30,340 bases of DNA, taken from the NCBI GenBank assembly GCA_023334545.1, contig JAADVB010000223.1, positions 1 to 30,340 of the forward strand, in the 5' to 3' direction. A program made the position numbers and the translations under genes. Positions within the stretch are counted from its first letter, which is position 1, and the number at the start of each line of letters is the position of its first letter. The DNA comes from Salisapilia sapeloensis. Its lineage: Eukaryota > Oomycota > Peronosporomycetes > Peronosporales > Salisapiliaceae. Shown here in pieces: positions 4,515 to 24,410 of this stretch. The notes under the pieces were generated by a model, which was not told the DNA's origin, made no database searches, and saw nothing but the letters and a program-made list of their open reading frames with translations.

Positions 4515-7229
4515 ATGGCAATGCCGAAGAGCACGAAGAGCAGCGATGCCAAGGCGAAGGGTTCAGCTGCTGCCGTGAAAAAGGCTGCTAAACCCTCCAC
4601 AGCCACCGCCAAGAGCACGCACAAGAAATTTGGTGCTGGAAACGATACAAAGCCTGCAAAATCGGGTACCAAGGCTGACCTTGTGCAGGACGATGGCAGT
4701 CTCGAAGCCTTACGAGCGAAATTGGAGGAAGGGACAGCTTGGTATGACATTCTAGAGCCATTGCAAGCACCGGAGCCTTCTGCGAAGAAGTCTAAGAAAT
4801 CTAAAAAGAAGCAAGCTGCCGAGACGGAAGAGCTGACTGCCGAGTCGCCTGCCGTCCAAAAGGCAAAGGCTAGAGGCCAGGCACTTCTCGAGCAGGAAGT
4901 CAGTCAGCACGAACGCAAAAAGGAAGGCAGTCTGTCAAGTGATGACAAGTACCTTGCGACCATGATGCGGTCTGGTACACTGTCGGATCGAGTGGCTGCA
5001 CTCACGCTATCTGTCCAGGCGTCTCCGATCCTGAGTTTATCCAAGCTCTCTCAGCTGACCACCATGGCGGGAAAGAAAGCACGTCGGGAGAGCCGTCTGG
5101 CTGTCGAGTCCTTGCGCGATCTCTTCATCAACAACCTGCTACCGACGGACCGCAAGCTTAGCTTCTTCCACCAACAACCACTCAGCCACCCAGACATCTC
5201 CGACGCGTACCTTTTGATCTGGTTCTTCGAACACTGCTTGAAGACTGCGTACGCCAACCTAGTGGGTGTCTTGTCGTCTGGCCTGGAAGACGCAGTTGCA
5301 GCGCATAAGAAGGGCTGTCTGCATGCAGCAGCAACCTTGTTGACGGAGAGACCGGAGCAAGAAGCTGTGCTCTTGTCCATGCTCGTGAACAAGTTGGGTG
5401 ACCCTGACCGAAAGATTGCTGCGTCTGTCCAGACGGCACTGAAGCAACTACTGACAGCACATCCGGCGATGAAGAAGGTGGTAGCAGACGACGTCGAACG
5501 TCTCGTCACTCGTCCGCACGTGGCGGATCGATCCAAGTACAACGCCATTCTTTTCCTGAATCAGCTGCAGCTGACGCATGAAGACGCAGATCTCGCTTCC
5601 CATCTCATCACAGTCTACTTTGGTCTGTTCTCGAAAGAGATTGCAGGTCTCCAGAAGGCTCCAACGCCCAATAGGAAGAAGAAGTCTGTCATGAAGAAGC
5701 AAAAGAAAGGAAAGAAGATGAAAGACGAGAACCCTCTCGACCGAAAGCTACTGAGTGCTCTGCTCATGGGTGTCAACCGCGCCTTCCCCTTCACGGACGC
5801 CACGTCCGCTAGTTTGACGAAGGAGATCGAGTCACTCTTCTCCGTCGTCCACAAAGCTCCTTTCGCCACAGGCATCCAAGCTCTACTTCTTCTCTTCCAA
5901 GTGCTCAGCAGTACGCACAGCGTCTCGGATCGATTCTACGTCGCGCTGTATGCGAAACTCATGGACCCAAGACTCAGACAGACTTCCAAGCACACGGTCC
6001 TGCTCAACCTCGTCTACCGCGCGATCAAGAACGACGTGTCTCCCGCTCGCAGTGCTGCGTTTATCAAGAGACTGCTGCAGCTGAGTCTAGCGATGAACCC
6101 TGCCTTTTCATGTGCCGTGCTGTACCTCGTGTCAGAGCTCTTCAAGGTCCAGCCACAGCTTCGTACGTTGTTGGATCAGCCATCGAGCGAAGTGTTTGAA
6201 TCGACCGCAAGTGAGATGAAGGCGGATACGAACGAGCACTCTGACTCGGAAGACGATGAGGTCGTGAAGAAGGATCAGGAGCAGTCTCAAGCTGTCCTCG
6301 CCCAAATGTTCGGATCGTCGGACACGACCGAGACGAGTGGAGAGCGCAAGTCTGTTGCTACGGTCTACGACCCGATGAAGCGTAATCCTTTGTTCGCAGG
6401 CGCCGAACGAACGTGTGCGTGGGAGGTTCGGTCGCTCTTGACCCATTACCACCCATCGGTGCGAGTGTTCACCAAGCAATTGGTCCTGGACAAAGAGACC
6501 GGTATCCAATACGACAGTGATCCTCTGATCGACTTCTCTGTGCCTTCGTTCTTCGAAAAGTTCGTGACGAAGAAGCCAAAGCCTACTGGTACCAAGCAAA
6601 CGTCCACGTCGTCCGCACCGACAACGTTGGCTGACATGGGTGCGCGGGAGACTGTGTCTACTGAAGACGACGCGTTCTTCCACCGGTTCTTCCAAGAGAG
6701 GTCGAACCGAGAGCAGCAGCATAAGAGTCTCAGGAAGAAGAAGAAGAGTGTCTTGGACGAAACGGACTCTGGACCACAAGACGCAGATGTGTTCTCGGAC
6801 AATGAGGACGGAGAGGATGAAGAGATGGAGGCCTTTGCGCAGCAGTTGGCCGAAGGTATGATGGAGGACGCTGATAATGACGACGAAGATCCGGACACGG
6901 GCGACTGGAGTGGACCTGAAAGCGACGACGATGAAGCTGACGCTGAGGACATGGAAGAACCCGAGATGGACGATATGGAAGAGCCAGAGTTTGATGGTGC
7001 CGACGATGACTCTGACGACGAAGAGCTGATGGAGTTTGGCGAAGATGAAGACGAAGAGGAAGAAGCGGAGGAAGAAGAAGAGGAGAAACCGGCGAAGAAG
7101 GATGGGAAGCGCAAGTCTCCTTTCGCTAGTGCAGATGATTATGAAGAGATGGTCAAGAAGGCGATGGAAGCTCGAGAAGCCAAGGCCGACAGTGCTCCAT
7201 CCAAGAAGAAACGTAAGAAACAAAAGTAG
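4515..7229 (+). CDS. NOC1/MAK21/CEBPZ-type ribosome biogenesis protein
   Basis: This 904-residue single-exon protein belongs to the CBF/Mak21 family (yeast Noc1/Mak21, human CEBPZ), a nucleolar factor for early 60S subunit assembly and export. The first 60 residues and about 80-100 are lysine/alanine-rich and basic, as expected for a nucleolar protein. Residues about 130-450 form a helical-repeat region. The CBF domain spans about 455-690 and includes the family hallmark near residue 624 (YDPMKRNPLFAGAE) followed by WEV, then HYHPSV and the ending DFSVPSFFEKF. Residues about 755-860 are an extreme Asp/Glu tract and the last residues are a basic lysine/arginine tail. The ATG at 4515 sits in a good context (AGATGGCA); a second ATG two codons later is possible. 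Long antisense frames over the acidic tract are shadows. The neighbouring acetate kinase is convergent. Confidence 0.93.
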   Translation: MAMPKSTKSSDAKAKGSAAAVKKAAKPSTATAKSTHKKFGAGNDTKPAKSGTKADLVQDDGSLEALRAKLEEGTAWYDILEPLQAPEPSAKKSKKSKKKQAAETEELTAESPAVQKAKARGQALLEQEVSQHERKKEGSLSSDDKYLATMMRSGTLSDRVAALTLSVQASPILSLSKLSQLTTMAGKKARRESRLAVESLRDLFINNLLPTDRKLSFFHQQPLSHPDISDAYLLIWFFEHCLKTAYANLVGVLSSGLEDAVAAHKKGCLHAAATLLTERPEQEAVLLSMLVNKLGDPDRKIAASVQTALKQLLTAHPAMKKVVADDVERLVTRPHVADRSKYNAILFLNQLQLTHEDADLASHLITVYFGLFSKEIAGLQKAPTPNRKKKSVMKKQKKGKKMKDENPLDRKLLSALLMGVNRAFPFTDATSASLTKEIESLFSVVHKAPFATGIQALLLLFQVLSSTHSVSDRFYVALYAKLMDPRLRQTSKHTVLLNLVYRAIKNDVSPARSAAFIKRLLQLSLAMNPAFSCAVLYLVSELFKVQPQLRTLLDQPSSEVFESTASEMKADTNEHSDSEDDEVVKKDQEQSQAVLAQMFGSSDTTETSGERKSVATVYDPMKRNPLFAGAERTCAWEVRSLLTHYHPSVRVFTKQLVLDKETGIQYDSDPLIDFSVPSFFEKFVTKKPKPTGTKQTSTSSAPTTLADMGARETVSTEDDAFFHRFFQERSNREQQHKSLRKKKKSVLDETDSGPQDADVFSDNEDGEDEEMEAFAQQLAEGMMEDADNDDEDPDTGDWSGPESDDDEADAEDMEEPEMDDMEEPEFDGADDDSDDEELMEFGEDEDEEEEAEEEEEEKPAKKDGKRKSPFASADDYEEMVKKAMEAREAKADSAPSKKKRKKQK

Positions 7230-7703: not shown

Positions 7704-8993
7704 CTACAAAGCAATCCTAGCGGTCTGATCGGCGATACTACGTTCTTCATCCGTAGGCAAGACCAGTACCTTGATCTTCGAGTTCTTGCTCTGGATCTCC
7801 GTTGGACCTTCTCCCATCATCGCCTGTCCGTTCTTCTCGTCATCCAGCTCGATGCCGACAAAGGCCAAGTCCTTGCAAACACGCTCTCGGATCATGGCAC
7901 TGCTCTCGCCTGTGCCAGCCGTGAACACGATGGCTTGGCATTCACCAGCCAACTCGAGCAAGTACGCACCGAGGTACTTGCGCACACGATGCGCGAACAC
8001 GTCCAGAGCTAGAGCAGCTCGTTCGTCGCCTTCACGGACACGATCCTGGATGTGTCGGACGTCACTGTCTCCGCAAAGTCCGAGCAATCCGCTCTTCTTG
8101 TTCAACATCTTGTCCACGTCATCGAGCTTCATGTCGAGGTGGTTCGTGAGGAAAGAGTGGAGAGCAGGGTCGACGTCTCCACTGCGCGTGCCCATGACCA
8201 GACCTTCAAGCGGCGTCACGCCCATGGTCGTATCGACACACGTTCCATTCTTGACTGCTGCCATCGACGCTCCGTTACCCAAGTGGCACGTAATAATGTT
8301 GCACTCTTCTGTCTTGCAGCCGAGAATCGACGCAGCCTTCTCCGTAACGAACTGGTGAGAAGTGCCGTGGAAGCCGTAGCGACGAACGCCGTGCTTTTCA
8401 TACAACTCATACGGAAGAGCGTACATGTACGCCTTGGGTGGCATGTCCGCATGGAAAGCAGTGTCAAAGACACCGACGTTCGGGAGCTTATTGCCAAAGA
8501 CTTGCGTCGCGACGTCGATGCCCAGCAGACCTGGGGGGTTGTGGAGAGGAGCGAGACTCGCATTGCTCTCAATTGCTTCCTTCACCTGAGCATCGATGAG
8601 CGCGGCCTGATGAATTTTCTCTCCGCCATGGACAATTCGATGGCCGATCGCAGCGAGGCCAGCCATGTCATCGGCGTGGAAGTATCTTTCGACAGCAGCC
8701 TGAAGTGCGTCCTTGTGCGAATGCAAGGGCAGCTCAACCTTTTCCTTTTTCTCCTCTCCACTTGGGCTATAGCTCGTGTGCTTAATACAACCGTCTTTGC
8801 CCTCGCTCGGCGAAAGCTCCACGAGACCAGAGAAGACGGGAGACCCGACCTGTTTGTCTTCCAATCCGAACATCTTGTACTTGAGCGACGAGCTGCCGGC
8901 GTTCAGTACTAGCAGACGAGCATCACTGTGGGCAGCGGACGAGAACGACCGGCGCAGAGGTGTAGATAGACGAAGAGAACGAGATGCGAGCAT
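7704..8993 (-). CDS. ackA: Acetate kinase, probably mitochondrial
   Basis: The 429-residue product is a bacterial-type acetate kinase (EC 2.7.2.1), interconverting acetyl phosphate plus ADP with acetate plus ATP. Family blocks are all present: NAGSSSLK at residues 31-38, the GHRIVHGGE block, FDTAFH, GFHGTSH, CHLGNGAS, MGTRSGDVDP and FTAGTGE. The open frame continues upstream to 9116, but the first ATG is at 8993, so I use it. That start gives a leader of about 24 residues, MLASRSLRLSTPLRRSFSSA, rich in Arg/Ser/Leu and lacking acids, typical of mitochondrial targeting; bacterial enzymes begin at about residue 27. No intron. In other eukaryotes this enzyme partners phosphotransacetylase or phosphoketolase; neither is in this window. 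Family certain, location inferred. Confidence 0.95.
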   Translation of the reverse strand: MLASRSLRLSTPLRRSFSSAAHSDARLLVLNAGSSSLKYKMFGLEDKQVGSPVFSGLVELSPSEGKDGCIKHTSYSPSGEEKKEKVELPLHSHKDALQAAVERYFHADDMAGLAAIGHRIVHGGEKIHQAALIDAQVKEAIESNASLAPLHNPPGLLGIDVATQVFGNKLPNVGVFDTAFHADMPPKAYMYALPYELYEKHGVRRYGFHGTSHQFVTEKAASILGCKTEECNIITCHLGNGASMAAVKNGTCVDTTMGVTPLEGLVMGTRSGDVDPALHSFLTNHLDMKLDDVDKMLNKKSGLLGLCGDSDVRHIQDRVREGDERAALALDVFAHRVRKYLGAYLLELAGECQAIVFTAGTGESSAMIRERVCKDLAFVGIELDDEKNGQAMMGEGPTEIQSKNSKIKVLVLPTDEERSIADQTARIAL

Positions 8994-10465
8994 GATGCTG
9001 CGGATATGAAAATGCGATTGCTGCTTCCGGTCGACGTTTAGCTGCGCGCCTCGTCTCAGGATCGTTTTGCGGCAGACAGGCGTTGGAGGAAGGGTGAAGA
9101 ATACGCAAAAACGCACTTTTAGACATAAATTAGGGTCTCTATCACGTAAGTACGCGCTTAATTATTTGCGCACGTTTAAAGTTACAGCTCATTCTTTCAA
9201 ATCGTAGCTTTTGCGGATAAAAACGACAAAAAGAGTGCTTTTGTCCAATTAAAACGTCCGTCTGGTTACGTGCTTGGTATGTCGTCTACGGAAGCTGCAG
9301 ACGCGACGCCAAGTGACCGTGAGTGCAGTATGCTAGCAAGGCAATGGATTGGACTACGAGTTAGTATTTGCGTAGTAGATTTGAAGGTGAGCCAAATGGA
9401 AACTAGGAATGGATGAAGAGAGCGAGAGTTCAATAGTTTAGATAAACGACTTCGCTTTAGCACGGAAACTCACAACCTTTGCTGTCTAGTTAGCTTCATC
9501 AGTTCTTTATGAAGGAGAAGTTCCTCGGACAAAATGCAGGAGACAAAACTTTATGTGTTCTAGGATTGGTCTATAAACTATAAAGACCTGTAGAAGATAT
9601 AAAGTGCCCATTCCGAGCAATGCTTGATAGAAAACAACGGAAATGCAATGCAGCACTCGTAATACGATAATTGTTTACTGCGTGTGTCCGTACGAGATGG
9701 TTGAAGATAGATTGGCAGCAACCCCACTATCGTATCGGATACGTATTGTTCGAGCACTGGCGTAAACTACTTGGTACTGTCCGATGCAAAGAGTCTGTAC
9801 ATTCGGACATTAGCTCTTTCTGTCCATCCCTTAGAAATTTGCCTGCGAAAAATGCGATTCATTCTTTGCATTGAGTACAGCGCCCTAAGCGAGTGCCCTC
9901 TAGGTCAAACTGCTGCACCGACATTCACTATCCTTCAAATTATCCTTTAATACCTACTCGTCTCCATACTTCGTGCTTCCTACAGCATATACTTTTCGTA
10001 CTTCTCTTCTTGATACATTTTAACTAGGATACATGAATCCAGCTTAAAGAAATTCCCCGCCCTTTCTTGAAGCAAAATACTCTTTGCTTTTCGTAGAAGC
10101 CCAGTTGTAAATTCTGCATCGCCGAAGATGGCACAGCAATAGCTTTAAGCACGTAGTATACCTTTTGAAATCCCTGTTGCTTCCTAGTTTCCACTGGCGA
10201 TGCCGAACTATTTTGACGGATGGTACAACAGCCTTGACTTGGCCATAAACTTTTTACCATGGGCCCATGTATGACTTCGCACGCTTCAGTCATTTCGTCT
10301 CTAAAAGTGGCATGGTTAGAAAGAAATCTCGAGCTACCATGCGGTCCACAAATGTTGGCTACAGACGAAAAAGTGATGACTTAGCACGAAGTCACCTTGG
10401 TAAGCAAGTAGGAACCAAGTTTGATATCATTGCCCTTTTCGACGCCATTGATCACAAAGCAGATA
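8994..10465. other. Intergenic region, no supported gene
   Basis: About 1.5 kb between the divergent starts of acetate kinase and the secreted acidic protein. Frames of 65-101 codons occur but none has a recognisable motif. The sequence GCTCATTCTTTCAAATC near 9187-9203 resembles the oomycete initiator plus flanking element, but it points to the plus strand where no gene follows closely, so I do not call it a promoter. Confidence 0.55.
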
Positions 10466-11896
10466 ATGGTGTTTCTAGCACTTGCAGCAGTCGTAGTAGC
10501 CGCATCCATCAGCACAACTCATGCTGGGTTGATTTACCCTCGTCCCATCACAGGACCTTTCAAGCTAAATGAAGTTACCAATACTTCTATGGCTTGCGGA
10601 GAAGACTTGGGCGAGGCCGTTGTAGCGTATTTCCCGGTGGGCGGTACTGTTGAAGCACAGTATCATCGCGACGTTGAAGATCACTATGGTGGAATTATGA
10701 ATGGATTTATTCGTTGGGCTCTGGTTCCCATTAATTCTATCAAGGAGAACCCGTCGGCAAGTGATTTTGACAACAATGTACTGCAGTACACCTGCAACGG
10801 AGGCGATTTTGTGTCGTATCTATATGACGACGTAGAAAGAGTGCCGTATTATGAACTTGATGAAAAGTTTGGTATGACACAGGAAGAAAAAGAGATGTAC
10901 AATGGATACGTGTGCAAAAATGAACTTGAGCTTCCGGACTCTCTTCCAGTCGGATTGTACAAGCTTCAATTTACCCGCTTCGGTGCCGTGAAGGCAACTC
11001 GGACGAATGACGACGGCTGGGATACTGATGATTTCGAGTATGAAGTTAAGGTCGCTCCTGCAACTCCGCAACGCACGTGTGCCTACTTGAGAATCAATGC
11101 CAAAGATGATACGGATTCTGACGAGGATTCAGCTACAGTTTCAGGCTTGGACTTGGACTCAAACTCAGGGTCCTTGGAATCAATAGATAGTTCTGGTTCC
11201 ACTTCCGGCTCATTCCAGCCTGGTAAAGCACAAGGCAACCAGGAGACGGAAGATGATAGTGGTACGAGGAAGCCCTGGGATTGTTGGGGCTGCAGTAAAA
11301 ATGACGACGACTCTGCGAATGGCTCCAATGGCAGCAAAGTTGACGTCGGTGACAGCGACAGCACTGATGCTAGTGGCGGATTTTTAAATAAGGACATGTC
11401 TGCCTCCGCAGGTCATGCTGACTCGGATTCTAGTAGCGCGCATGGGTCTCGTGCTGGATCTCATTCTTCTCTAAGTGAAAGCCGCAGTATTAGTACCATT
11501 GACGCTACTTCAGGTCAAGGCAGCGCTAGCAGATCTGAGGGCAGTTTACAAAGTACGGACATCTCAAGCACTGACACTGTTGTCGGAGACGATGATGGCG
11601 ATGATAATCGGAATGAGGCCGCTGTAACAGTCCGGAAACTACAGGATACTTCAAATTCTGGTGATCGCACTAAAGTAGATCTCGGATGCCCCGAACTCAG
11701 CACCATATACATGTCTGGTATGGTTGGCGGGGAATGTTACTTTGCTTTTACGAACGAGATTGAGAGTGCGGAGGATTTGTCTACTATTTTGGAAAAATTG
11801 ATCCACCTCGATCTTTATTTTGGTATGTTTTTCGAAGACCTGCCGAAACCGTTTGAAAAGGGTCAGCCTGCCGATTTCAACCCTGATTGTTCCTAG
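10466..11896 (+). CDS. Secreted protein, LPMO-like N-domain, acidic Ser-rich tail
   Basis: The 476-residue product starts with a clear signal peptide (MVFLALAAVVVAAS), cleaved either after T18, leaving His19 first, or after A20. The open frame extends upstream but the first ATG is 10466. Residues about 19-205 look like a compact disulfide domain with C44, C110, C150 and C205. It begins HAGLIYPRP, carries H67 and H73 just before a predicted strand FIRWALVP, and ends near ELPDSLPVGLYKLQF. That arrangement recalls lytic polysaccharide monooxygenases, whose mature N-terminal His and a second His bind copper; this is a pattern match, not a proven homology. Residues about 215-400 are a low-complexity Asp/Ser/Gly-rich linker with a CWGC island. 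A cysteine-containing C-terminal segment of about 70 residues follows and resembles nothing I know. No GPI signal or TM segment is seen. RXLR is absent. Confidence 0.8.
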   Translation: MVFLALAAVVVAASISTTHAGLIYPRPITGPFKLNEVTNTSMACGEDLGEAVVAYFPVGGTVEAQYHRDVEDHYGGIMNGFIRWALVPINSIKENPSASDFDNNVLQYTCNGGDFVSYLYDDVERVPYYELDEKFGMTQEEKEMYNGYVCKNELELPDSLPVGLYKLQFTRFGAVKATRTNDDGWDTDDFEYEVKVAPATPQRTCAYLRINAKDDTDSDEDSATVSGLDLDSNSGSLESIDSSGSTSGSFQPGKAQGNQETEDDSGTRKPWDCWGCSKNDDDSANGSNGSKVDVGDSDSTDASGGFLNKDMSASAGHADSDSSSAHGSRAGSHSSLSESRSISTIDATSGQGSASRSEGSLQSTDISSTDTVVGDDDGDDNRNEAAVTVRKLQDTSNSGDRTKVDLGCPELSTIYMSGMVGGECYFAFTNEIESAEDLSTILEKLIHLDLYFGMFFEDLPKPFEKGQPADFNPDCS

Positions 11897-12835: not shown

Positions 12836-14518
12836 ATGGCAGAGTCCTTCGATAACTTCCTTGCCGAGGGCAAAGGCAACGCCCCTGAGCCGCTCATCTC
12901 GGGCACGCTATACAAGCGCCCGGAGAAGAACTCTTTGCTGTGGAAAAAGCGATACTGCGTCATTTACAAGAACGCGTCGTCACCACAGATTGTCTACTTT
13001 GAGAGTGAAGAGGCTTTCCAGGAGGGACGTGTCCGCGGAAAGATCTCGTTCTCGTCTGTCCACGCGTGGGACGGAAAGCCCTATGGCATCCAGTTCTACA
13101 CGCCCACTAACAAACTCTACCGCGTCTACTGTGAGAATGACGAGGAGCAAAAGCAGTGGCTCAGCACCATGCAGCAAGCCATTGACGCCACGCCCGACAT
13201 GGGGGATGGTACCTCCGTTCCGCACGACCGACCGGTCGTTTCCTCCCCGACATCTTCCCCGAAATCGTCGGACGGATCGCCCGAAAAGGCTCGATCCTTC
13301 CGCAAGGCTCGCCAAGACTCGTGGCGTGAGGAGGATGGCGACACGGCTGCCATGACACAGGAGCTAGAGGACTTGCGTAGCGAAGTCGCCACTCTCCGTG
13401 CCGAACTCGTGTCGTACGAAAAGACCGAGCAGAAGTTTGCTCCGGAGATCAAGAAGCTGCGTACGCGTCGTGGTAGTATCCTAGACGACGGTACCGAGGT
13501 CGATCTCAACCCTCGTGAGATGGAGCGCATGCGTGGTATCTTCGACCTTTTCGACACGCAGGGCAACGGATGCATCTCTGAAGACGACTTGATCGACCTC
13601 CACGCCAAGCTTGGTGAGCCGATCACGGCTGAGGAGGCCAAGGAGGCCGCAGCGTACATGCAGCCGGAGGGAGGCAAGATCAACTTCGACTCGTTCATCA
13701 AGTGGTGGAACGACGACCACTCGAGCAGCAGTCAGACGGAGGCCATGAAGCGCTACCAGGCCAAGTTCAAGTTCCTCAAGGCTCGTATCGCGAACCCTCA
13801 GATCGGCAACCTCGAGACGCTGAGTGAAGGCCCGTTCCCGAGCTTTGAGTTCCGTCTCCAGTTCTTCCATAACAACCCCAAGGACGGTACGCGCGAGCAA
13901 ATCTCTCCGTGGCACGATATTCCGCTCTACAATGCGGACGGAAGCGTCAACTTTATCTGTGAGATCCCCAAGTGGACGCGAAAGAAGATGGAGATTGCCA
14001 CGGGCGAACCGTTCAACCCGATCAAACAAGACACCAAGAATGGTAAACTGCGCGAGTACACGTGGGGAGACATGATGTTCAACTACGGCTGCCTGCCGCA
14101 GACGTGGGAAGACCCGGCGCACGTGACGGAGGGCACCGGATGCATCGGTGACAACGATCCGATCGATGTGCTCGAGATCGGTACCAAGCAGTGGCGCACG
14201 GGTGCTGTTGTCCAGGTCAAGATCCTAGGTGTCCTTGCCCTCATTGACGATGGTGAGACGGACTGGAAGGTCCTGTGCATCAATGTGGAGGACCACTACG
14301 CGTCGCAGATCCACGACGTGGCGGACATTGAAGCGCACATGCCTGGCTGCATTACTGCCATCCACGACTGGTTCCGTGACTACAAGGCTCCTAAGGTCAA
14401 CAAGTACGGCTTTGAGGGCCGATGCCTCAGCCGCGACTTTGCGGAGGACGTAGTGGCCGAGACGCACGAGTTCTGGAAACTGCTCATCCAGGAACGTGGT
14501 GGTCAGGCCACGGTCTAG
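12836..14518 (+). CDS. PH / EF-hand / inorganic pyrophosphatase fusion
   Basis: A 560-residue single-exon protein with four parts. Residues about 20-117 are a pleckstrin-homology domain (GTLYKRPEK, WKKRYCVIY, closing helix with W109), expected to bind phosphoinositides or proteins. Residues about 130-165 are a Ser/Pro/Arg linker. Residues about 172-205 are a coiled coil. Residues about 229-293 are an EF-hand pair: the first loop is D240-TQGNGCISED-D251, the second looks degenerate. Residues about 330-555 are a family I soluble pyrophosphatase (EC 3.6.1.1) with WHDIPLY, EIPKWTRKKMEI, KQDTKNGKLR, NYGCLPQTWEDP and the signature DNDPIDV at 439-445. It hydrolyses diphosphate to two phosphates. The first in-frame ATG is 12836 (GTCATGGCA). 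Trypanosomatid acidocalcisomal pyrophosphatases also carry EF-hands; the PH addition is the unusual part. The MYB gene downstream is convergent. Confidence 0.95.
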   Translation: MAESFDNFLAEGKGNAPEPLISGTLYKRPEKNSLLWKKRYCVIYKNASSPQIVYFESEEAFQEGRVRGKISFSSVHAWDGKPYGIQFYTPTNKLYRVYCENDEEQKQWLSTMQQAIDATPDMGDGTSVPHDRPVVSSPTSSPKSSDGSPEKARSFRKARQDSWREEDGDTAAMTQELEDLRSEVATLRAELVSYEKTEQKFAPEIKKLRTRRGSILDDGTEVDLNPREMERMRGIFDLFDTQGNGCISEDDLIDLHAKLGEPITAEEAKEAAAYMQPEGGKINFDSFIKWWNDDHSSSSQTEAMKRYQAKFKFLKARIANPQIGNLETLSEGPFPSFEFRLQFFHNNPKDGTREQISPWHDIPLYNADGSVNFICEIPKWTRKKMEIATGEPFNPIKQDTKNGKLREYTWGDMMFNYGCLPQTWEDPAHVTEGTGCIGDNDPIDVLEIGTKQWRTGAVVQVKILGVLALIDDGETDWKVLCINVEDHYASQIHDVADIEAHMPGCITAIHDWFRDYKAPKVNKYGFEGRCLSRDFAEDVVAETHEFWKLLIQERGGQATV

Positions 14519-14777: not shown

Positions 14778-15774
14778 CTAATATAAAGACTCTCTGACGT
14801 CTTGGTCACGATCCAGGCGTGCATTGCACTCGATCACTTCTTGGAAAATGTCATCCAGGGCACCACTTGAATCGAGAATATCGTCCACATCACTCTCGTC
14901 CAAAGCCATCTGAAACCCACCGCCATATAGAACGTTGATGGGCTCGTGGGGATGATAATAGTCCTCTTTGCCCAAGTTGCACGTCGGCTTTGGTTCTGCC
15001 TTGAGACTTTTGCGTTTATCCAACACCCTAGAGACTTCTGCACAAGAGGATGAAGCCTTTACACGCTTCGCTCTCTTGTCGATTCGGTTCATCGGCGAGA
15101 TGGTGGAGGTTTCCATCGTATCAACGCAAGCTTGGATGTCGTCCTTGGTCAATATGTTGGAATCAGCCATGGCGCTGTGATATGTGCGCTTGCGTATAGA
15201 TTTCGGCTCTACTTGTTTAACTCGATGGAGAGCATGCCAATGGTTCTTGACTGCGTTATCGGTTCGCCCTTGTAGCATTTTTGCCAGGACAGACCACTTG
15301 TTACCATGAATTCGATGCAGCTCTTCTAGTCTTTCATCCTCTTCCTTAGCCCATGGTATATGGCGGATGCTCGGGTGAAGCTGATTCTTCCATCTGCAAC
15401 AGCTTAGTAGGCAGTCAACAGCAAGTTGAAACATAGGACAGCGTACCGGTCGCGACACTGTTTGGCAGTACGATTTGTAAAGTAGGAAGCGATCTTCTTC
15501 CACTTATGAGCTCCCTGGTGCTGCACAAGACTTTTCAGTTTGTTGTCCTCATCCTGAGTCCAAAACTTTCGTCTACCCTGGACTTGTTTCAGGGATGGAC
15601 TAGGAATAGCTCTTTTGCTACTGGCCGAGGAGGGCTCCGCAGTTTCAAAATCCACCCGATGTCGATCATCATGCTATCAGTATTCGTAGTTAGAAGATAT
15701 AGATTGATACGGTATGAATAGTGCTGTACCTCCTCGACAACCGATAGTCGCGGCTTGGACACCTTAATCGACAT
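14778..15774 (-). CDS. R2R3-type MYB transcription factor
   Basis: Three exons on the minus strand: 15774-15730, 15673-15447 and 15393-14778, with introns of 56 nt (15674-15729, GTACAG...GATAG, branch-like CTAAC) and 53 nt (15394-15446, GTACGC...GCAG). They encode 295 residues. R2 has Trp at 53, 73 and 92; R3 has Trp at 105, 124 and 143, with 18-19 residues between them within each repeat, as in two-repeat DNA-binding MYBs. The second intron interrupts the end of R2, and splicing it restores QCRDRWKNQLHPSIR. The first intron is in phase 0 after a 15-codon exon starting at a true ATG; the frame of exon 2 has no ATG of its own before R2. The C-terminal half is low-similarity and ends in an acidic stretch (DESDVDDILD), a possible activation region. 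Target genes are unknown. Confidence 0.88.
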
Positions 15775-16588: not shown

Positions 16589-17687
16589 ATGGGACTGCTC
16601 ACTTTCAAATTTGCAGTCTTCCCGCGATCTTGTGTCCCGCAGAGCCGCATGAATCTCCTTCTATCGGTGATTAACGTCGTCGTGTCGATCTCATCGACGT
16701 ACATGAGTATTAGCCCGACAACGGCGATGTACCGGATTCACAAGCACAAGTCTACTGGTCTGGCGTCCGTCGTTCCGCTTGCTGCTTTATGGTTTTGCAA
16801 CAACACTTGGTGGGTTGCTCTATGGCTACTGCATTAATCATTTCAATTCTAATATCTCGACTTCGCATTATAGGATGATGTATGGCATTCTCAAAGGGGT
16901 TCTATTTCCTCTTATTATCACCAACGCAGTTGGGAGTGTCTTCAGTATTGGCTATTTGATGGTTTTCTACCAACACACCATGGATAAACGCTTCGTTTTA
17001 TTTTGCTGCCTGATAGCGTTGATGACCAATACAGTGGTTGCCACGTACGCAATGCTAGGGAAAGCGCTTGTTTTCGGGCAAGCATTGGAAACTGTGACAG
17101 ATATCGTTGGATATATTGGCATGACTTCTAGCTTTATGCTTTACGCCTCACCTTTTATTCAGGTGGCTCAAGTGTTAAAGACCAAAACTTCGGAATCCAT
17201 TCCGATCCTGATGTCTACCGTTGGGACTTTAAATAACTTGCTTTGGATCATATATGCATACTTGGCAGGGGATAACCTTATTCTTATTCCATCCACGGTC
17301 AACTTCTCCTTCGGCGTCTTGCAAATCATCCTCTTCATATTATACCATCCACGCATTCAAGGATTGAATCACGGCATCAAGAACTTTAACACGGTCACTC
17401 TTGGAGCAATCCAGACAGTCTCAAGTGAAGTGCTCGAAGCGATTCATCCATTGAAACAAGGCGAGCTCATTTTCGATATGATCGCACCAAGCGTTATCGT
17501 GCCGGTTGAAACGAATGTAGAATCGTGTAAAGTTTATGCGGATCCATCCAATTTAACTTCTTCTGAGTCTCTTGACACGGACGTTGTGGAGGCAGTTGAC
17601 AGCACCACCTCTTTTAACTATGACAGCTCAAGTAATTTAGTGGAGCGAAACGTTGCCAGCGATACACTTGAGGACACAACCGAGTAG
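16589..17687 (+). CDS. SWEET (MtN3/saliva) sugar transporter
   Basis: Two exons, 16589-16809 and 16874-17687, encode 344 residues. The intron (16810-16873, 64 nt) has donor GTGGGT, a branch-like TTCTAAT and acceptor TTATAG; splicing joins ACT TG to G ATG, giving NNTWMMYGILKG. The distance from KST to MYG is then 25 residues, the same as in plant SWEETs. Seven membrane segments form two MtN3 repeats (about residues 25-110 and 140-225) with the PL-xx-TNAVG block in the first and LYASPFIQV, KTKTSESIP and IPSTVNFSFGVLQ in the second. SWEETs are bidirectional uniporters for mono- or disaccharides, usually in the plasma membrane. A second ATG at 16649 gives a family-normal N-terminus and may be the true start. 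The C-terminal tail of about 120 residues is hydrophilic and longer than usual. Substrate unknown. Confidence 0.88.
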
Positions 17688-18292: not shown

Positions 18293-20150
18293 CTATAGCA
18301 GAGGACGGTATTCATCTTGGCGGCGTTTTAACGTGATCATGGCAAACGCAACGGCACCGACAACTGCAACGAGTCCTGCTGTACCAGCCACTAGTAAGGT
18401 AGAACTGTGCACGTCAGAGGTAGTGGCAGACAGGCTGACAGCGTACTCTGATCCTTGAAGGATTTCGCTTCGGGGGGCATCAAGCATTTCCTGTGTCATG
18501 CACTTGGTTTTGGACAGATTCGCAAACCAATTGGCTGCAGGACGAGGAAGGCGCTTCAGGTCAGAAGCCTTTGGTTCGTAAATCTCATGTGAACCAACTT
18601 GTGGCGGGAAGTCGACGTAGTAGAGCCCGAAGCGCGGTTCAAAAGATCCCCATTCCTATTACATAGCAATGTCAGCAGGTCATTTGCATTTCGAATACGA
18701 ACGTAATCTTACATAGTTGTCCAGAAGCGACCACGCAGTGTATCCGATGATCGGAATGTTCTCTTCGTAGATGGCCTTGTGCACCTGGTCAAGGTACGCC
18801 TGGTAGTACCACAATTGCGTCTTACTCTCGATGATATCATTGCCACAGTATCCATTTTCAGTCAGAAGGATGTCTGCCTTCGGGTCAAACGAATGGGTGT
18901 ACTTGATGTTTTGCATGTAGCCTTCAGGATGAGCTGCCCACGACGGACAGTTGTAATCACCCTTTCGGTTCTTCGCGGCCATGACGGAGTCTTCAAAGAA
19001 CTGAGTCTGCCAATCCAGTCCCATATCTTTTTCAAATCCAGGCACAAGACTCTCGCACTTAATGTTTGACCTCGGAGAGTCACAGTCAGTAACCAGCCAG
19101 GACGTGTAGTGGTTAACCATGAAGAGATCATACGATCCCTTCACAAGAGCTTCTTCTTCCTCGGAGAACTCCGGGAGACGGTCGCCAACGCGCTCTCGCA
19201 TAATAGCAGGATACTTACCCGTCGTAATAGGGCTAAGCCACCATCCAATGAAGAATGAGTTCAATCGCTCGGCAGCATCGATATCCGCCTGGCTGTCCGA
19301 ATCAACTGGGTAGGAACCACCCATAGGAATCACAATACCAATGCGAGCATCATCTCGTACGACACCTGCTGTCTTGAGGTTGCGGAAGTTGGCTACGGCT
19401 CTGGCATGCGAAAGTAGGATGTGATGCGTGACAACGTACGTATCTGTGTCTGATCCGGACATACCAGGAGCCATGCGACCATTGCCGTACCCAAAGTACG
19501 ACGTTACGATAGGCTCATTAAAAGTAGACCAGTACTTCACCTTCTCTCCAAACTCGTGGAAGATGAGAGTGGCGTACTCTTCGTAGTGGCTGATGATCTC
19601 CGGGTTGATCCAGCTTGGAGGAGAAAGCTCCGTGTGCAACTCAGATGGGAGGTCCCAGTGGTAGATCGTGAGGATTGGCTCGATGTTCTTTTCAACGAGC
19701 TTGTCGACTACAGCATGGTAAAACTTGATTCCCTCTGGATTAGGCTTCATTCGTTCGGTCTCTGGATCCCAGTTCATCACACGAGACCAGGATATGGAGA
19801 AACGGAAGGTATCATGGCCGTCAGCAACCATCAGATCCACATCCGAAGCGTAGCGGTGAAAGAAATCATCAGCAACGTTGGCGCATGCTCTTTCTTCACT
19901 TTCACGACAAAAGCTATAGGCGTAAATTTATTAACAACCAGAATTATTTTAACGATTATAGCAAGACGTACTCATCCCAGATACTTGGCGTACGTCCACC
20001 CTCTTCTACAGCCCCCTCAACTTGATAAGATGCAGTAGCAGAACCAAAGAGGAAGTTGTCAGGGAAGCATTTGGTTTCTTCTGAAGCAGCGGACGAGGAT
20101 ACCAGTGCGACCGTGGCAGTAGCTGCCAAAGTCCATATCTTTCCCAGCAT
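18293..20150 (-). CDS. GH1 beta-glucosidase, secreted and membrane-anchored
   Basis: Three exons, 20150-19972, 19913-18713 and 18655-18293, encode 580 residues. Intron 1 (19914-19971, 58 nt, GTACGT...CTATAG) joins SIWD to the next exon and yields [20 protein letters not shown], a typical GH1 start. Intron 2 (18656-18712, 57 nt, GTAAGA...TAATAG) restores [20 protein letters not shown]. Residues 1-22 are a signal peptide ([17 protein letters not shown]). The acid/base is E193 in FNEP and the nucleophile is E412 in LLTENGY. Residues about 547-569 are a hydrophobic segment followed by the basic tail [11 protein letters not shown], so the enzyme should be a type I membrane protein with its catalytic domain outside. 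It hydrolyses terminal beta-glucosides; the exact substrate cannot be read. The SWEET transporter is the convergent neighbour, suggesting linked sugar use. Confidence 0.92.
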
Positions 20151-21428: not shown

Positions 21429-22136
21429 TTACTCATCCGCTAACCGACCAACTATGACGTATTTTTCTTTAAATTTCTTCACCCAGTCGTCAAGCACCTT
21501 TTGCTGTTCATCCGTCAAGTCGTCGACTCTCGGATCATCCAGATCGGCCTCACTGAGTGACATGCAGGCGAGGGCTCTTGTCACATCTCTTCCAGCAAAC
21601 TGGCCGTACATACCTTGTTCAGGATGATAAAACTCTTTCCCTGTCAACGTGACATCGTATATCTGTCCAGCGACAGCTACGAGGATTTCCTTTCGTGGGT
21701 CCTGTACACCATCATACCTTTGCAATTCTTCTCTTGTCATGTCTCTTGTCATAACGATACGTCCGACAATTTGCACCTGCTCCTCTTCCAGTAGCTTTTC
21801 CTGCCATTGTGCCATTCGACTCATCATCTCCTCTTCCAGATCTCTCAAATCCTCTTTGCGAACGACATTCTTCTTGTCGCCTGTTGCAACTGCATACGAC
21901 ACATCTTTTCCAGCCCACATACAAAGCTCTCCATTCGGACCATACTCATCCGCCAAGCTGGTCACGTCATAGACATCACTCGCGACAGATATATAAATTG
22001 GAAGTCCACATCTTCCATTAAAAGCTTCTAACTCATCAAAAGTAAAGCAGCGTCCAGAAGGATCCCTCTCATCGCCTGTCGGCCGTGGCGGAAGTACCTT
22101 CGGACCTTTTGGATTCGTCGCCACGGCATTTCCCAT
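21429..22136 (-). CDS. Tandem cytochrome-b5-like (MAPR) protein, myristoylation motif
   Basis: A 235-residue protein with two domains of the MAPR family (PGRMC1/neudesin-type cytochrome b5-like heme-binding domains). Domain 1 covers about residues 30-127 (FTFDELEAFNG, VYDVTSLADEYGPNG, MWAGKD) and domain 2 about 132-232 (MTREELQRYDG, GQIYDVTLTGKEFYHPEQ, QFAGRDVTRALA). Domain 2 keeps both tyrosines of the heme site (Y170, Y177); domain 1 has Leu71 where the axial Tyr is expected. The open frame starts at a TTG three codons upstream, so the ATG at 22136 is the first; it gives MGNAVAT, a classic N-myristoylation context, instead of the usual N-terminal TM helix of PGRMC proteins. MAPR proteins act in heme handling and P450 support. 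It starts 132 bp after the stop of the SulP gene, same strand. Confidence 0.85.
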   Translation of the reverse strand: MGNAVATNPKGPKVLPPRPTGDERDPSGRCFTFDELEAFNGRCGLPIYISVASDVYDVTSLADEYGPNGELCMWAGKDVSYAVATGDKKNVVRKEDLRDLEEEMMSRMAQWQEKLLEEEQVQIVGRIVMTRDMTREELQRYDGVQDPRKEILVAVAGQIYDVTLTGKEFYHPEQGMYGQFAGRDVTRALACMSLSEADLDDPRVDDLTDEQQKVLDDWVKKFKEKYVIVGRLADE

Positions 22137-22268
22137 CGTGTACAAGTGAAAAACGAAACGGGCAACGTAACAAGTCCATGATAACGCGCAAGATCAAGTA
22201 ATTTATGCAAAGGTAGAGTGTACTTGCGTTTATAAATACCACCTTGGGCATATTTCTACAATAAACAA

Positions 22269-24410
22269 CTAGGCAGTTGGCGAGGAAGTCGGGTGCAGAC
22301 GGACACGAGCGATCGCGTCTTCCAAAGTAATGGATGGATCTCCTGCTACTAATCGCTTGCTCAGCTTGGACGCAGTCATCATATCACTGATACGACCATT
22401 GGCATGCGCAATGCCGAGGCAAAGATCTTTCCTCGCGAGCTTCTCCTCCAGATCGGAAAGCACCTGCAACGTCGTTGCGTCCATATCGTTCATGTGTCTC
22501 GCATCCAGGACGACTCCCTTGATCTCGACATCGAGACTGTTCACGCGAGAAAGCTCTTGCTCGATACACACGACGACTCGTTCGCAGTTGGCAAAGTACA
22601 GAGAGCTCTCGACTCGCAACGCCACCACATCCTCCAACACTGAAGTGTACGGGTACATGCTTCGGTCCACGAGGCTTCCGTCGTCGAGCTCTGCCAGGAC
22701 AGCGACAGGCTGCGTCTTGGTCTTGTACATGAGCGCCAGGACGGACGAGATAATGGAGGCAAAGAGACCGTTGAGGACACCAAGGCCGAGCGTCAGGACG
22801 AAGGCTGCGAGCCAGACGAAGAACTCGTCTTTTTTCACCTGGTACAGCCACTTGGCTTCATGCATCTCCACAAGAGAGCTGCCGGCGACGATGATGATGG
22901 CCGCTAGACTCGCTGCTGGGAGGTAGTACAGCGCACTCGTCATGGTGTAGAGCGCGATGATGATGATCAGGACGGTGCAAATGGACGCCAGTTGCGTACG
23001 CGCATTCTGCATGTTGACAGCCGTGCGGGACATGGCACCAGTCGATGGGATGGCGGTGAGGAAACCGCAGACGATACTGGCCATGCCGAGACCCATGAGC
23101 TCCTGGTCCGTGTTAATGTCCTCTCCACGCTTAATCGCTAGTCGCTTGGACATGGCGATAGATGAAAGGTACACGACGGCGGCAATGGAGCATGCGTGGC
23201 CGATCATGCTGCCAAAGTCACCTGCATCCAGCAGCCCTTCGTTGAAGCCATACCATGGCACACGAGGGGTGCCATATCCACTAGGCACATCACCTGTGAG
23301 CTCGAGACGCTCCGGACCGACAATATAGCCGACGACACCGCCGAGGATGCAGACGATGAGAGGTCCGAGGTCGCATACGGTCTTAGCGACGAAGAGGAGC
23401 AAGAGCGTCGTCTTGGACATGGGTTTCTCCTGCTCTTCTTCTCCAAACGGATCCACTTCGTCCTTTTCAACGACGGTCGTGGGAGACTCCGGAACAGCGG
23501 ATCGCTGCGCTTGCATGTGCTCCATACTGACGTACTGTTGATCTGTCAGAGAGAAGCCGTGGCTCTGATTGTTCGAGTTGACAGGCGTGAGGACCATCGG
23601 GTTCTGCTGCGTGCCAGATCCGTAGCTGAGTGACTCGGATTCCTCATCTTTCGTCGTATCTGCGTCTTCCTCAAAGATGCTGTTTAAAGAAATCTGTGCG
23701 AGGAACTTGCGTTTGATGATCCGGAGCGATAGAAGGAGGACGATGGAGACGAGACCGAGCACGAAGCTCGTGATATTCGTGTGTGGAATGCTCTCCAAGA
23801 CACGGTAGACGGTTACGGGCGGAAAGTCTTCGTGCTTGACCTTGACATCCAGCCAGTTCTTGACCTGCGACAGCATGATGAGGAGACCACCGGCTGAGAT
23901 GAAACCTCCCATGACCGGACGAGAGAAGAAGTCGGCGATCTGACTTAGATTAAGCGCTCGGAGGACGAGAAGGATGGCGCCAGAGAGGAACGAGTAGAAG
24001 ACGACGGTCGCTGTACGCGTTTCTTCATCCTCAATGTCACTAACAGTCGATCCGACCAGTAAAGACACTTCGGATCCACTCGCGACGGAGAGGACGGTCG
24101 AGCTACCGAACAAGGCGTAGATGAAAGGAGCAGAGGCAGCTGTGTAGAGTCCGTGCTCCGGTGCGACCTGCATCAGTTTCGACAAAGAAACTTCCTGTGG
24201 AATGAGCATCATGGCGACGGTGATGCCGGCAACGATGTCAAACATAAGATCGCGCTTGACATTGTACTGCGGCAGCCATTGGAGGATCGGAAGTAGGTAC
24301 TTGACTCGCTCCTTAGCAGTCGGCCGTCGTACTTGCAAGTGGAAAGATGAGTCGTGGGACGCCTGGCTACTGGACGACGCGCCATTTCGACGTTGGTGTA
24401 TCTCGGACAT
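22269..24410 (-). CDS. SulP/SLC26 anion transporter with STAS domain
   Basis: A 713-residue single-exon membrane protein of the SulP/SLC26 family, which moves sulfate, bicarbonate, chloride or other anions. It has the N-terminal transport core (MLIPQEVSLSKLMQVAPEHG, then ALFGSSTVLSVASGSEVSLL), later helices including SIVCGFLTAIPSTGAMSRTA, and a C-terminal STAS domain at about 575-700 (LRVESSLYFANCERV, VVLDARHMNDMDATTL), with the regulatory DxDAT-type loop. Between about residues 237 and 335 lies a long hydrophilic acidic segment (EEDADTTKDEESES, Gln/Asn-rich, then DPFGEEEQEKP) inside the membrane part, which family members lack or keep short. The frame is open to 24605, and the ATG at 24551 is also in frame, so the start is uncertain; 24410 gives the most family-like N-terminus. 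Substrate cannot be read from sequence. Confidence 0.92.
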   Translation of the reverse strand: MSEIHQRRNGASSSSQASHDSSFHLQVRRPTAKERVKYLLPILQWLPQYNVKRDLMFDIVAGITVAMMLIPQEVSLSKLMQVAPEHGLYTAASAPFIYALFGSSTVLSVASGSEVSLLVGSTVSDIEDEETRTATVVFYSFLSGAILLVLRALNLSQIADFFSRPVMGGFISAGGLLIMLSQVKNWLDVKVKHEDFPPVTVYRVLESIPHTNITSFVLGLVSIVLLLSLRIIKRKFLAQISLNSIFEEDADTTKDEESESLSYGSGTQQNPMVLTPVNSNNQSHGFSLTDQQYVSMEHMQAQRSAVPESPTTVVEKDEVDPFGEEEQEKPMSKTTLLLLFVAKTVCDLGPLIVCILGGVVGYIVGPERLELTGDVPSGYGTPRVPWYGFNEGLLDAGDFGSMIGHACSIAAVVYLSSIAMSKRLAIKRGEDINTDQELMGLGMASIVCGFLTAIPSTGAMSRTAVNMQNARTQLASICTVLIIIIALYTMTSALYYLPAASLAAIIIVAGSSLVEMHEAKWLYQVKKDEFFVWLAAFVLTLGLGVLNGLFASIISSVLALMYKTKTQPVAVLAELDDGSLVDRSMYPYTSVLEDVVALRVESSLYFANCERVVVCIEQELSRVNSLDVEIKGVVLDARHMNDMDATTLQVLSDLEEKLARKDLCLGIAHANGRISDMMTASKLSKRLVAGDPSITLEDAIARVRLHPTSSPTA

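What the first reader, a model, noticed from the sequence alone, without database searches (positions are those of the whole stretch)
12836..14518. PH + coiled coil + EF-hand + soluble pyrophosphatase in one protein
The pyrophosphatase signature DNDPIDV and its other conserved blocks are intact, yet about 330 residues precede them: a PH domain, a coiled coil and an EF-hand pair with a good first loop (D240 to D251). Soluble pyrophosphatases are usually short cytosolic enzymes. This layout suggests an enzyme placed on membranes through phosphoinositides, perhaps dimerised, and tuned by calcium. Trypanosomatid acidocalcisomal pyrophosphatases have an EF-hand, which makes the idea plausible; the PH domain may be specific to this lineage. 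The open frame is continuous and single-exon, so the fusion is not an artefact of joining.
Basis: partly seen in the sequence, partly recalled or inferred. Interest (0 to 1): 0.75.

Follow-up and report, generated by a model that had tools for sequence, protein, structure and literature searches.

The report
PH-tethered EF-hand pyrophosphatase of oomycetes
In this water-mould genome an enzyme that clears pyrophosphate carries an extra module that looks lipid-binding and another that looks metal-binding; related water moulds share the build, which suggests that a supposedly free-floating housekeeping enzyme may be parked on membranes there, but this is untested.

Summary
The frame 12836-14518 (+) encodes 560 residues: PH domain (E 4e-10), a 40-residue helix, an EF-hand pair and a family I pyrophosphatase. 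It is no joining artefact: 27 of 139 proteins in hand (query included) carry this PH. They form one clade (SH-aLRT 97) inside a broad protist family of EF-hand pyrophosphatases that includes trypanosome vacuolar soluble pyrophosphatase (VSP).

Phosphoinositide binding is plausible: W-K-[KR]-R stands in 18 of 18 aligned oomycete rows, though one motif lysine lapses in four and the basic pair in the sister group. Calcium tuning is weaker: loop 1 ends in Asp in 22 of 22 PH-clade rows, and loop 2 lacks acidic residues at both ends. Magnesium or a structural role is at least as likely. Nothing supports an acidocalcisome role.

New: the assembly's two other family I enzymes look mitochondrial, and membrane-anchored and fused to ATP sulfurylase. 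Unless the assembly is incomplete, the PH-EF enzyme is the only candidate for the general cytosolic pyrophosphatase.

New variant of a known kind; lipid binding, location and metal effect are untested.

The parts
12836..14518 (+). single-exon gene for the PH-EF-pyrophosphatase, 560 aa plus stop
   Evidence: orthologue starts
12890..13189 (+). PH domain, residues 19-118 (seven strands and C-terminal helix)
   Evidence: Pfam E 4.4e-10; AF2 with alignment, block means of residues 21-120 between 80 and 98; domain folded alone matches solved PH domains
12914..12955 (+). putative phosphoinositide motif K27-x-P29...W36-K37-K38-R39-Y40
   Evidence: W36 K37 [KR]38 R39 in 18 of 18 aligned oomycete rows, K27 in 14 of 18; motif definition from passages of PMC4746654
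13301..13336 (+). conserved motif R-x-x-R-x-D-S-W-R-E-E in the disordered linker, residues 156-167; possible kinase site S162 (inference)
   Evidence: R159 and S162 in 18 of 18, W163 in 17 of 18 aligned oomycete rows; absent from the sister group
13343..13462 (+). predicted coiled-coil helix, residues 170-209
   Evidence: AF2 secondary structure; simple heptad scan
13466..13495 (+). R-R-G-S-I-L-D-D-G-T motif before the EF-hands, residues 211-220; its L-x-D-G part recurs in many PH-less EF-pyrophosphatases; possible basophilic kinase site S214 (inference)
   Evidence: R211, R212, G213, L216, D218, G219, T220 in 18 of 18 aligned oomycete rows; P0011, not in that alignment, reads R-H-G-S
13511..13723 (+). 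EF-hand pair, residues 226-296
13553..13588 (+). EF loop 1, D240-T-Q-G-N-G-C-I-S-E-D-D251 (Gln at position 3, Asp at position 12)
13658..13693 (+). EF loop 2 region, residues 275-286; no acidic residue at first or last loop position; one residue short in the alignment, so the register is uncertain by one
13805..14515 (+). family I soluble pyrophosphatase domain, residues 324-560 (Pfam core 13955-14479)
14150..14170 (+). DNDPIDV signature, residues 439-445

Best explanation
The gene encodes a cytosolic family I inorganic pyrophosphatase of the EF-hand (VSP-like) type to which a PH domain was added, most simply once, before the oomycetes in hand diverged. The PH domain most likely recruits the enzyme to phosphoinositide-bearing membranes, so that pyrophosphate is cleared where membrane-linked synthesis releases it. 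One candidate site is UDP-glucose supply to the wall synthases: three of four cellulose synthase loci in this genome also carry a PH. The helix 170-209 probably holds subunits together and raises avidity. The EF pair acts as a divalent-metal-dependent structural or regulatory coupler, more likely with magnesium or mixed than as a classical calcium switch. Shown: the domains, conserved catalytic residues, one clade of PH-bearing proteins, conserved PH and EF residues, and the pyrophosphatase genes found in the assembly. Inferred: activity, lipid binding, membrane location, oligomerisation, metal effect and the link with wall synthesis.
For: Domains and fold. One clade: 23 PH rows of 96, SH-aLRT 97, nested among EF-pyrophosphatases; a PH profile hits 27 of 139 proteins, query included, and the next best of the other 112 has E 0.46. 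PH motif W-K-[KR]-R in 18 of 18 aligned oomycete rows; a Saprolegnia cellulose synthase PH with such a motif is reported to bind phosphoinositides (PMC4746654, passages). Of 14 active-site positions of the yeast enzyme (list and mapping recalled and placed by eye), 13 are invariant in 22 of 22 PH-clade rows; the fourteenth is Met in them and in VSP. No hydrophobic stretch before the catalytic domain: best 19-residue mean 0.13. Three family I genes: the other two begin with a presequence-like stretch or a hydrophobic segment before APS kinase-ATP sulfurylase; no family II DHHA2 match. Cellulose synthase loci on C94 and two on C228 have a PH match in the same open frame; C74 has none.
Against: K27 is Asn in 4 of 18 aligned oomycete rows, and the sister group has lost most of the basic pair, so lipid binding may not be the shared function; many PH domains bind proteins (general knowledge). 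The PH has no close relative of known ligand: best PDB sequence match E 2e-4. No localisation, lipid or activity data. AF2 pTM is 0.56, so the arrangement of the domains is undetermined. The same crude score gives one orthologue, P0007, a stretch of mean 1.72 near its N-terminus. The assembly may be incomplete (19.5 Mb, 452 contigs, no completeness given), so a plain cytosolic pyrophosphatase could be missing.
Confidence: 0.55

Rival explanations
1. The PH domain is a protein-protein or intramolecular module, not a lipid anchor: it docks the enzyme to a partner (for instance a synthase or the cytoskeleton) or folds back on the EF or catalytic part. (The rivals are not mutually exclusive, so the confidences do not add to one.)
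For: Sister-group PH domains read W-R-S-S, W-R-T-S, W-Q-V-R and W-A-S-R where oomycetes have W-K-[KR]-R; within oomycetes the PH is less conserved than the catalytic part (mean identity to this protein 0.60 against 0.82 over 17 rows).
Against: W-K-[KR]-R is kept in 18 of 18 aligned oomycete rows, and an oomycete PH with such a motif is reported to bind phosphoinositides (PMC4746654 passages).
Confidence: 0.27
2. Calcium-switched enzyme: the EF pair senses calcium signals and turns the pyrophosphatase on or off. It could hold together with membrane recruitment.
For: D240, G245 and D251 of loop 1 are kept in 22 of 22 PH-clade rows; some PH-less relatives have two loops that fit the simple calcium-loop pattern, so the family may bind calcium by descent.
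Against: Asp at position 12 in 22 of 22 and Gln at position 3 in 13 of 18 oomycete rows; loop 2 has no acid at its first or last position in any of the 22. Asp-12 loops generally favour magnesium, and calcium inhibits family I enzymes at the catalytic site (both recalled), so a simple calcium effect would not prove EF regulation.
Confidence: 0.25
3. The N-terminal part is mainly structural: PH, helix and EF pair set oligomeric state and stability, without signalling or targeting.
For: The N-terminal addition of P. falciparum pyrophosphatase is reported to be needed for stability and dimerisation, and TbVSP1 to be tetrameric (PMC5507929, passages).
Against: Such a role does not by itself explain conservation of the basic PH motif and of single metal ligands.
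Confidence: 0.15
4. Acidocalcisome or vacuole-lumen enzyme like trypanosomatid VSP.
For: The closest solved relatives by sequence and by Foldseek are named acidocalcisomal or vacuolar soluble pyrophosphatases.
Against: No hydrophobic stretch before the catalytic domain (crude score); PH domains generally work in the cytosol (general knowledge); no VTC match in the assembly, while the same search rang in 3 of 14 control genomes.
Confidence: 0.04

Closest known systems
Trypanosomatid vacuolar soluble pyrophosphatase VSP1 (PDB 5cuu, 5cuv, 5cuy, 5c5v)
   Different: The alignments begin after the PH, and no PH match was seen; the EF loop shown lacks most ligands; acidocalcisomal by name; EF and catalytic parts do not superpose together on this model (rmsd 13.5 to 19.0 in the top eight chains)
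PH-less EF-hand pyrophosphatases of Emiliania, dinoflagellates, Plasmodiophora and unnamed organisms
   Same: EF pair, then catalytic domain; the L-x-D-G motif before the EF pair in many of the aligned rows
   Different: No PH by profile; some have instead a strongly hydrophobic N-terminal stretch (28 of 133 rows by a crude score); Glu at position 12 of loop 1 in 17 of 32 aligned rows
PH-containing oomycete cellulose synthases (SmCesA1, 2, 4 in PMC4746654)
   Same: N-terminal PH on a metabolic enzyme of oomycetes; basic motif at strands 1-2
   Different: Transmembrane enzymes with an unrelated catalytic domain; their PH domains were not among the matches of this protein in its own genome at E 0.001
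APS kinase-ATP sulfurylase-pyrophosphatase fusion (C376 here)
   Same: Another soluble pyrophosphatase placed by gene fusion; such a triple entry is listed for oomycetes in PMC6264045 (passage)
   Different: Fused to the producing enzymes rather than to targeting modules

Membership tests
Family I inorganic pyrophosphatase | Pyrophosphatase domain with D-N-D-P-x-D signature and conserved active-site residues | tested here: met
   Pfam E 1e-40; 13 of 14 recalled yeast active-site positions invariant in 22 of 22 PH-clade rows; the fourteenth, a tyrosine, is Met as in VSP
Family I inorganic pyrophosphatase | Pyrophosphate hydrolysis | not testable with these tools
   needs purified enzyme
VSP-like EF-hand pyrophosphatase | EF-hand pair immediately upstream of the catalytic domain; nearest relatives of that type | tested here: met
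VSP-like EF-hand pyrophosphatase | Acidocalcisome or vacuole location | tested here: inconclusive
   no hydrophobic N-terminal stretch, no VTC match; location itself untested
PH domain proteins | PH fold: seven strands and C-terminal helix | tested here: met
Phosphoinositide-binding PH domain | K-x-small-x(n)-[RK]-x-R-hydrophobic-hydrophobic motif | tested here: met
   K27-R-P29 and K37-K-R39-Y-C here, counting Pro as small; Lys-27 lost in 4 of 18 aligned oomycete rows and the second part degraded in the sister group
Phosphoinositide-binding PH domain | Measured lipid binding | not testable with these tools
   needs protein
Canonical calcium-binding EF-hand pair | Two loops with D/N/S at 1, 3, 5 and Glu at 12 | tested here: not met
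   loop 1 has Gln-3 and Asp-12; loop 2 has no acid at its first or last position

The most novel reading that the evidence does not exclude
Oomycetes have no freely diffusing general cytosolic pyrophosphatase: the only such enzyme is lipid-recruited through its PH domain and metal-gated through a magnesium-tuned EF-hand, so that pyrophosphate level, and with it wall-polymer precursor synthesis, is set locally by phosphoinositides at the growing tip. More widely, EF-hand pyrophosphatases of protists would be a family of membrane-placed pyrophosphatases that use different anchors (PH here, N-terminal hydrophobic segments elsewhere).
Probability: 0.22. Interest if true: 0.75.

Novelty: new variant of a known kind. 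Interest (0 to 1): 0.45.

Why it matters
Soluble pyrophosphatase is usually treated as a diffusible housekeeping enzyme that pulls biosynthesis forward. If a whole lineage, which includes plant and fish pathogens as well as saprotrophs, keeps its only general cytosolic copy on membranes, pyrophosphate becomes a locally controlled metabolite, and a link between phosphoinositide signalling and cell-wall supply becomes testable with one protein.

Tried and rejected
PPi-dependent glycolysis as the reason for sequestering the enzyme: the assembly shows one PFK match, with motifs GGDGT and PKTIDND. PMC5715807 (passages) puts oomycete PFKs in a 'mixed' group whose phosphate donor is not settled, and reports PPDK in oomycetes. 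This neither supports nor excludes the idea; not used.

Acidocalcisome role: set aside because no hydrophobic N-terminal stretch and no VTC match were seen. PF09359 did not ring for this genome; the assembly may be incomplete.

Origin of the PH: open. The closest PH in this genome by whole-protein search lies in a multi-PH protein on C101 (34%). The protein search with residues 1-125 returned 10 proteins of 102 candidates, all members of this same family.

Transcript continuity: no RNA data. Four relatives sit on contigs hardly longer than the frame (P0004 1831, P0009 1807, P0012 2036, P0017 1916 bases), as transcripts would, but the nature of those contigs is unknown.

Saprolegnia proteomics (PMC5768655, passages) reports two pyrophosphatases higher in mycelium; the passages do not say of which type.

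Rows chosen and dropped. Column counts use alignment A2: 54 proteins picked by hand out of 121 then in hand. Its 18 'oomycete rows' are P0001 to P0010 and P0012 to P0019; nine bear oomycete names, the others, query included, are placed by closeness. P0011, P0020, P0021, P0022 and P0027 were not in it; P0011 departs at the RRGS motif (R-H-G-S). The 32 'other' rows include P0028, an oomycete-like fragment. One of my catalytic columns was at first taken for the yeast Tyr89 position; the check showed that this position is Met-413, and the count was mended to 13 of 14. The tree leaves out 13 rows without initial Met, the short rows P0027 and P0028, and P0021, P0022, P0029, P0030, P0031, P0046, P0094, P0124 and P0136. 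Near-copies outside the PH group were thinned from 115 to 96 rows, and this removed P0020, an oomycete model with a damaged PH that my script had labelled 'other'. It is a quick tree without bootstrap, rooted at the midpoint, with long branches that meet elsewhere in it. The best 120 of 1009 hits and of 188 were listed, and only about 8000 candidates were scored in each, so PH-bearing pyrophosphatases outside this clade are not excluded.

Full report
Observation. The frame 12836-14518 (+) is one uninterrupted reading frame of 560 codons and a stop. Pfam finds PH at 21-116 (E 4.4e-10), an EF-hand pair at 230-290 (E 2.3e-6, slightly under its curated cut-off) and Pyrophosphatase at 374-548 (E 1e-40). 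Against solved structures the best matches are trypanosome acidocalcisomal pyrophosphatases, aligned over EF-hand and catalytic part together (5cuu residues 75-404 to query 227-549, E 1e-73); further down come human and yeast enzymes for the catalytic part and calmodulins for the EF part. The AlphaFold2 model from a 54-row alignment (pLDDT 81.7, pTM 0.56) shows the strands and helix of a PH at 19-118, low confidence at 124-168, one helix at 170-209, two helix-loop-helix units at 226-296, and the catalytic domain. The PH folded alone without an alignment gives the same strands (best of five models pLDDT 79.3, the others 61 to 70) and matches solved PH domains.

Is the fusion real? Yes. The protein search (best 120 of 1009 hits listed) gives full-length PH-EF-pyrophosphatases named as Pythium, Globisporangium, Hyaloperonospora, Achlya, Thraustotheca and Aphanomyces at 63-73% identity, and four proteins of unnamed origin (P0023 to P0026) at 45-47%. 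A second search from P0023 added no PH member among the 120 of 188 hits listed. A PH profile built from 22 family members hits 27 of the 139 proteins in hand, query included; the next best is E 0.46. Database models P0020, P0021 and P0022 lack stretches, and P0027 and P0028 are fragments. P0028 begins just after where the PH would end; a PH-less gene there is not excluded. The strain that gave P0022 also gave the complete P0014.

Descent. In a quick tree of 96 rows built from the EF-to-end part, so that the PH itself is not used, the 23 PH rows are one side of a branch with SH-aLRT 97, within a larger group at 98, among PH-less EF-pyrophosphatases. One gain of the PH before the split of the oomycetes in hand from the unnamed sister group is the simplest reading. 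PH-less relatives include, by the names, Emiliania, Symbiodinium, Effrenium, Alexandrium and Plasmodiophora. By a crude score (19-residue Kyte-Doolittle mean of 1.6 or more near the N-terminus) 28 of 133 rows, all outside the PH group by the way the labels were set, have a hydrophobic N-terminal stretch. The score cannot tell an anchor from a signal peptide, and one PH-bearing orthologue, P0007, also passes it (1.72).

PH ligand. W36-K37-[KR]38-R39 stands in 18 of 18 aligned oomycete rows and K27 in 14 of 18; the exceptions (P0015, P0016, P0018, P0019) have Asn. The four sister rows have lost most of the basic pair. The motif K-x-small-x(n)-[RK]-x-R-hydrophobic-hydrophobic, described for a Saprolegnia cellulose synthase PH that is reported to bind phosphoinositides (PMC4746654, passages), is met here if Pro counts as small. 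Lipid binding is therefore likely in the Pythium/Peronospora group, uncertain in Achlya and Aphanomyces, and doubtful in the sister group.

Metal site. Loop 1 is D-T-Q-G-N-G-C-I-S-E-D-D. Positions 1, 6 and 12 (D, G, D) are fixed in 22 of 22 PH-clade rows, while the 32 other aligned rows have Glu 17, Asp 11 and others 4 at position 12. Position 3 is Gln in 13 of 18 oomycete rows. Loop 2 varies in length, is one residue short in this protein, and has no acidic residue at its first or last position in any of the 22; some rows keep an Asp or Asn inside it. From general knowledge, a conserved Asp-12 loop points to magnesium or weak mixed binding. 'Tuned by calcium' is possible but not favoured.

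The genome's pyrophosphatases. The assembly (19.5 Mb, 452 contigs, completeness not given) has three family I genes and no family II DHHA2 match. C186 has a short enzyme that by eye is split by introns and whose first exon reads MLRRFGRLSLRPLHTPARCMVASF, like a mitochondrial presequence (no predictor run). C376 encodes a 1008-residue APS kinase-ATP sulfurylase-pyrophosphatase with a hydrophobic stretch near residues 40-58; such a triple entry is listed for oomycetes in PMC6264045 (passage). That leaves the PH-EF enzyme as the only one without an apparent organelle or anchor signal. Two proton-pumping pyrophosphatases are also present. If the assembly is representative, the PH-EF enzyme is the main soluble cytosolic pyrophosphatase. 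This is the most consequential inference here; it depends on completeness.

Mechanism proposed. A cytosolic enzyme, oligomeric through its helix, is held on phosphoinositide-bearing membranes by several PH domains at once and removes pyrophosphate near membrane-linked synthesis. Four cellulose synthase loci were found; three (C94 and two on C228) have a PH match in the same open frame. A review proposes that pyrophosphate from UDP-glucose synthesis must be removed during oomycete wall synthesis, and links that to membrane pyrophosphatases (PMC11210485, passages). A PH-bearing soluble enzyme near PH-bearing synthases is an alternative that fits. Two conserved short motifs, around S162 (R-x-D-S-W-R) and S214 (R-R-G-S), look like basophilic kinase sites and may add control (inference).

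Literature. Searches: soluble pyrophosphatase with EF-hand and PH domain (0 papers); three or more of six related terms (25 of 242 listed); vacuolar soluble pyrophosphatase (15 of 15); inorganic pyrophosphatase with oomycete (15 of 23 listed) and with EF-hand (20 of 56 listed); acidocalcisomal pyrophosphatase (5 of 5). None of the titles and abstract beginnings shown is about this architecture. I saw passages, not whole texts, of PMC5507929, PMC11210485, PMC5768655, PMC9694693, PMC6264045, PMC5715807 and PMC4746654; the terms 'EF-hand', 'PH domain' and 'pleckstrin' have no occurrence in the microbial pyrophosphatase review PMC11210485. Most subscription papers are not in the library, and the database entry P0021 already bears the name 'PH domain-like', so the build is visible to automatic annotation. 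Hence 'new variant of a known kind', interest moderate.

Noticed in passing
L021 342-3368 (G000 C376): APS kinase-ATP sulfurylase-pyrophosphatase of 1008 residues has a hydrophobic stretch near residues 40-58 preceded by basic residues, as a signal anchor would; if luminal, it would make PAPS inside the secretory pathway.
   Followed up: partly
P0029, P0030, P0031: Proteins of unnamed origin with two pyrophosphatase domains in tandem; the first domain of P0029 and P0030 has SLWNDVP/SLWNDIP instead of SPWHDIP.
   Followed up: no
P0053, P0057, P0059, P0115, P0127: EF-hand pyrophosphatases of unnamed organisms with a strongly hydrophobic N-terminal segment (19-residue mean above 2.3 in the first four, at least 1.6 in P0127), then a long linker and the EF pair: perhaps a different membrane anchor for the same enzyme.
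   Followed up: partly
L004 (G000 C101), minus strand: Protein with at least two PH domains by Pfam and a third by eye, the closest PH in this genome to that of the pyrophosphatase (34%); it also has a zinc-ribbon-like stretch and a C-terminal part of unknown kind.
   Followed up: no
window 7704-9116, minus strand: Acetate kinase (Pfam E 6e-139) with a presequence-like start at an internal Met; another phosphate-metabolism enzyme near this gene.
   Followed up: no
window 1852-3867 (-), 4515-7229 (+), 14778-15503 (-), 16779-17687 (+), 18680-19840 (-), 21429-22145 (-), 22269-24605 (-), 26147-26959 (-), 10421-11896 (+): Neighbours by Pfam: RINT1/TIP1, CBF/Mak21, Myb, SWEET-type sugar transporter, glycosyl hydrolase 1, cytochrome b5-like, sulfate permease with STAS, P450 piece. 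The frame 10421-11896 has no Pfam match and is Ser/Asp-rich with a hydrophobic start.
   Followed up: partly
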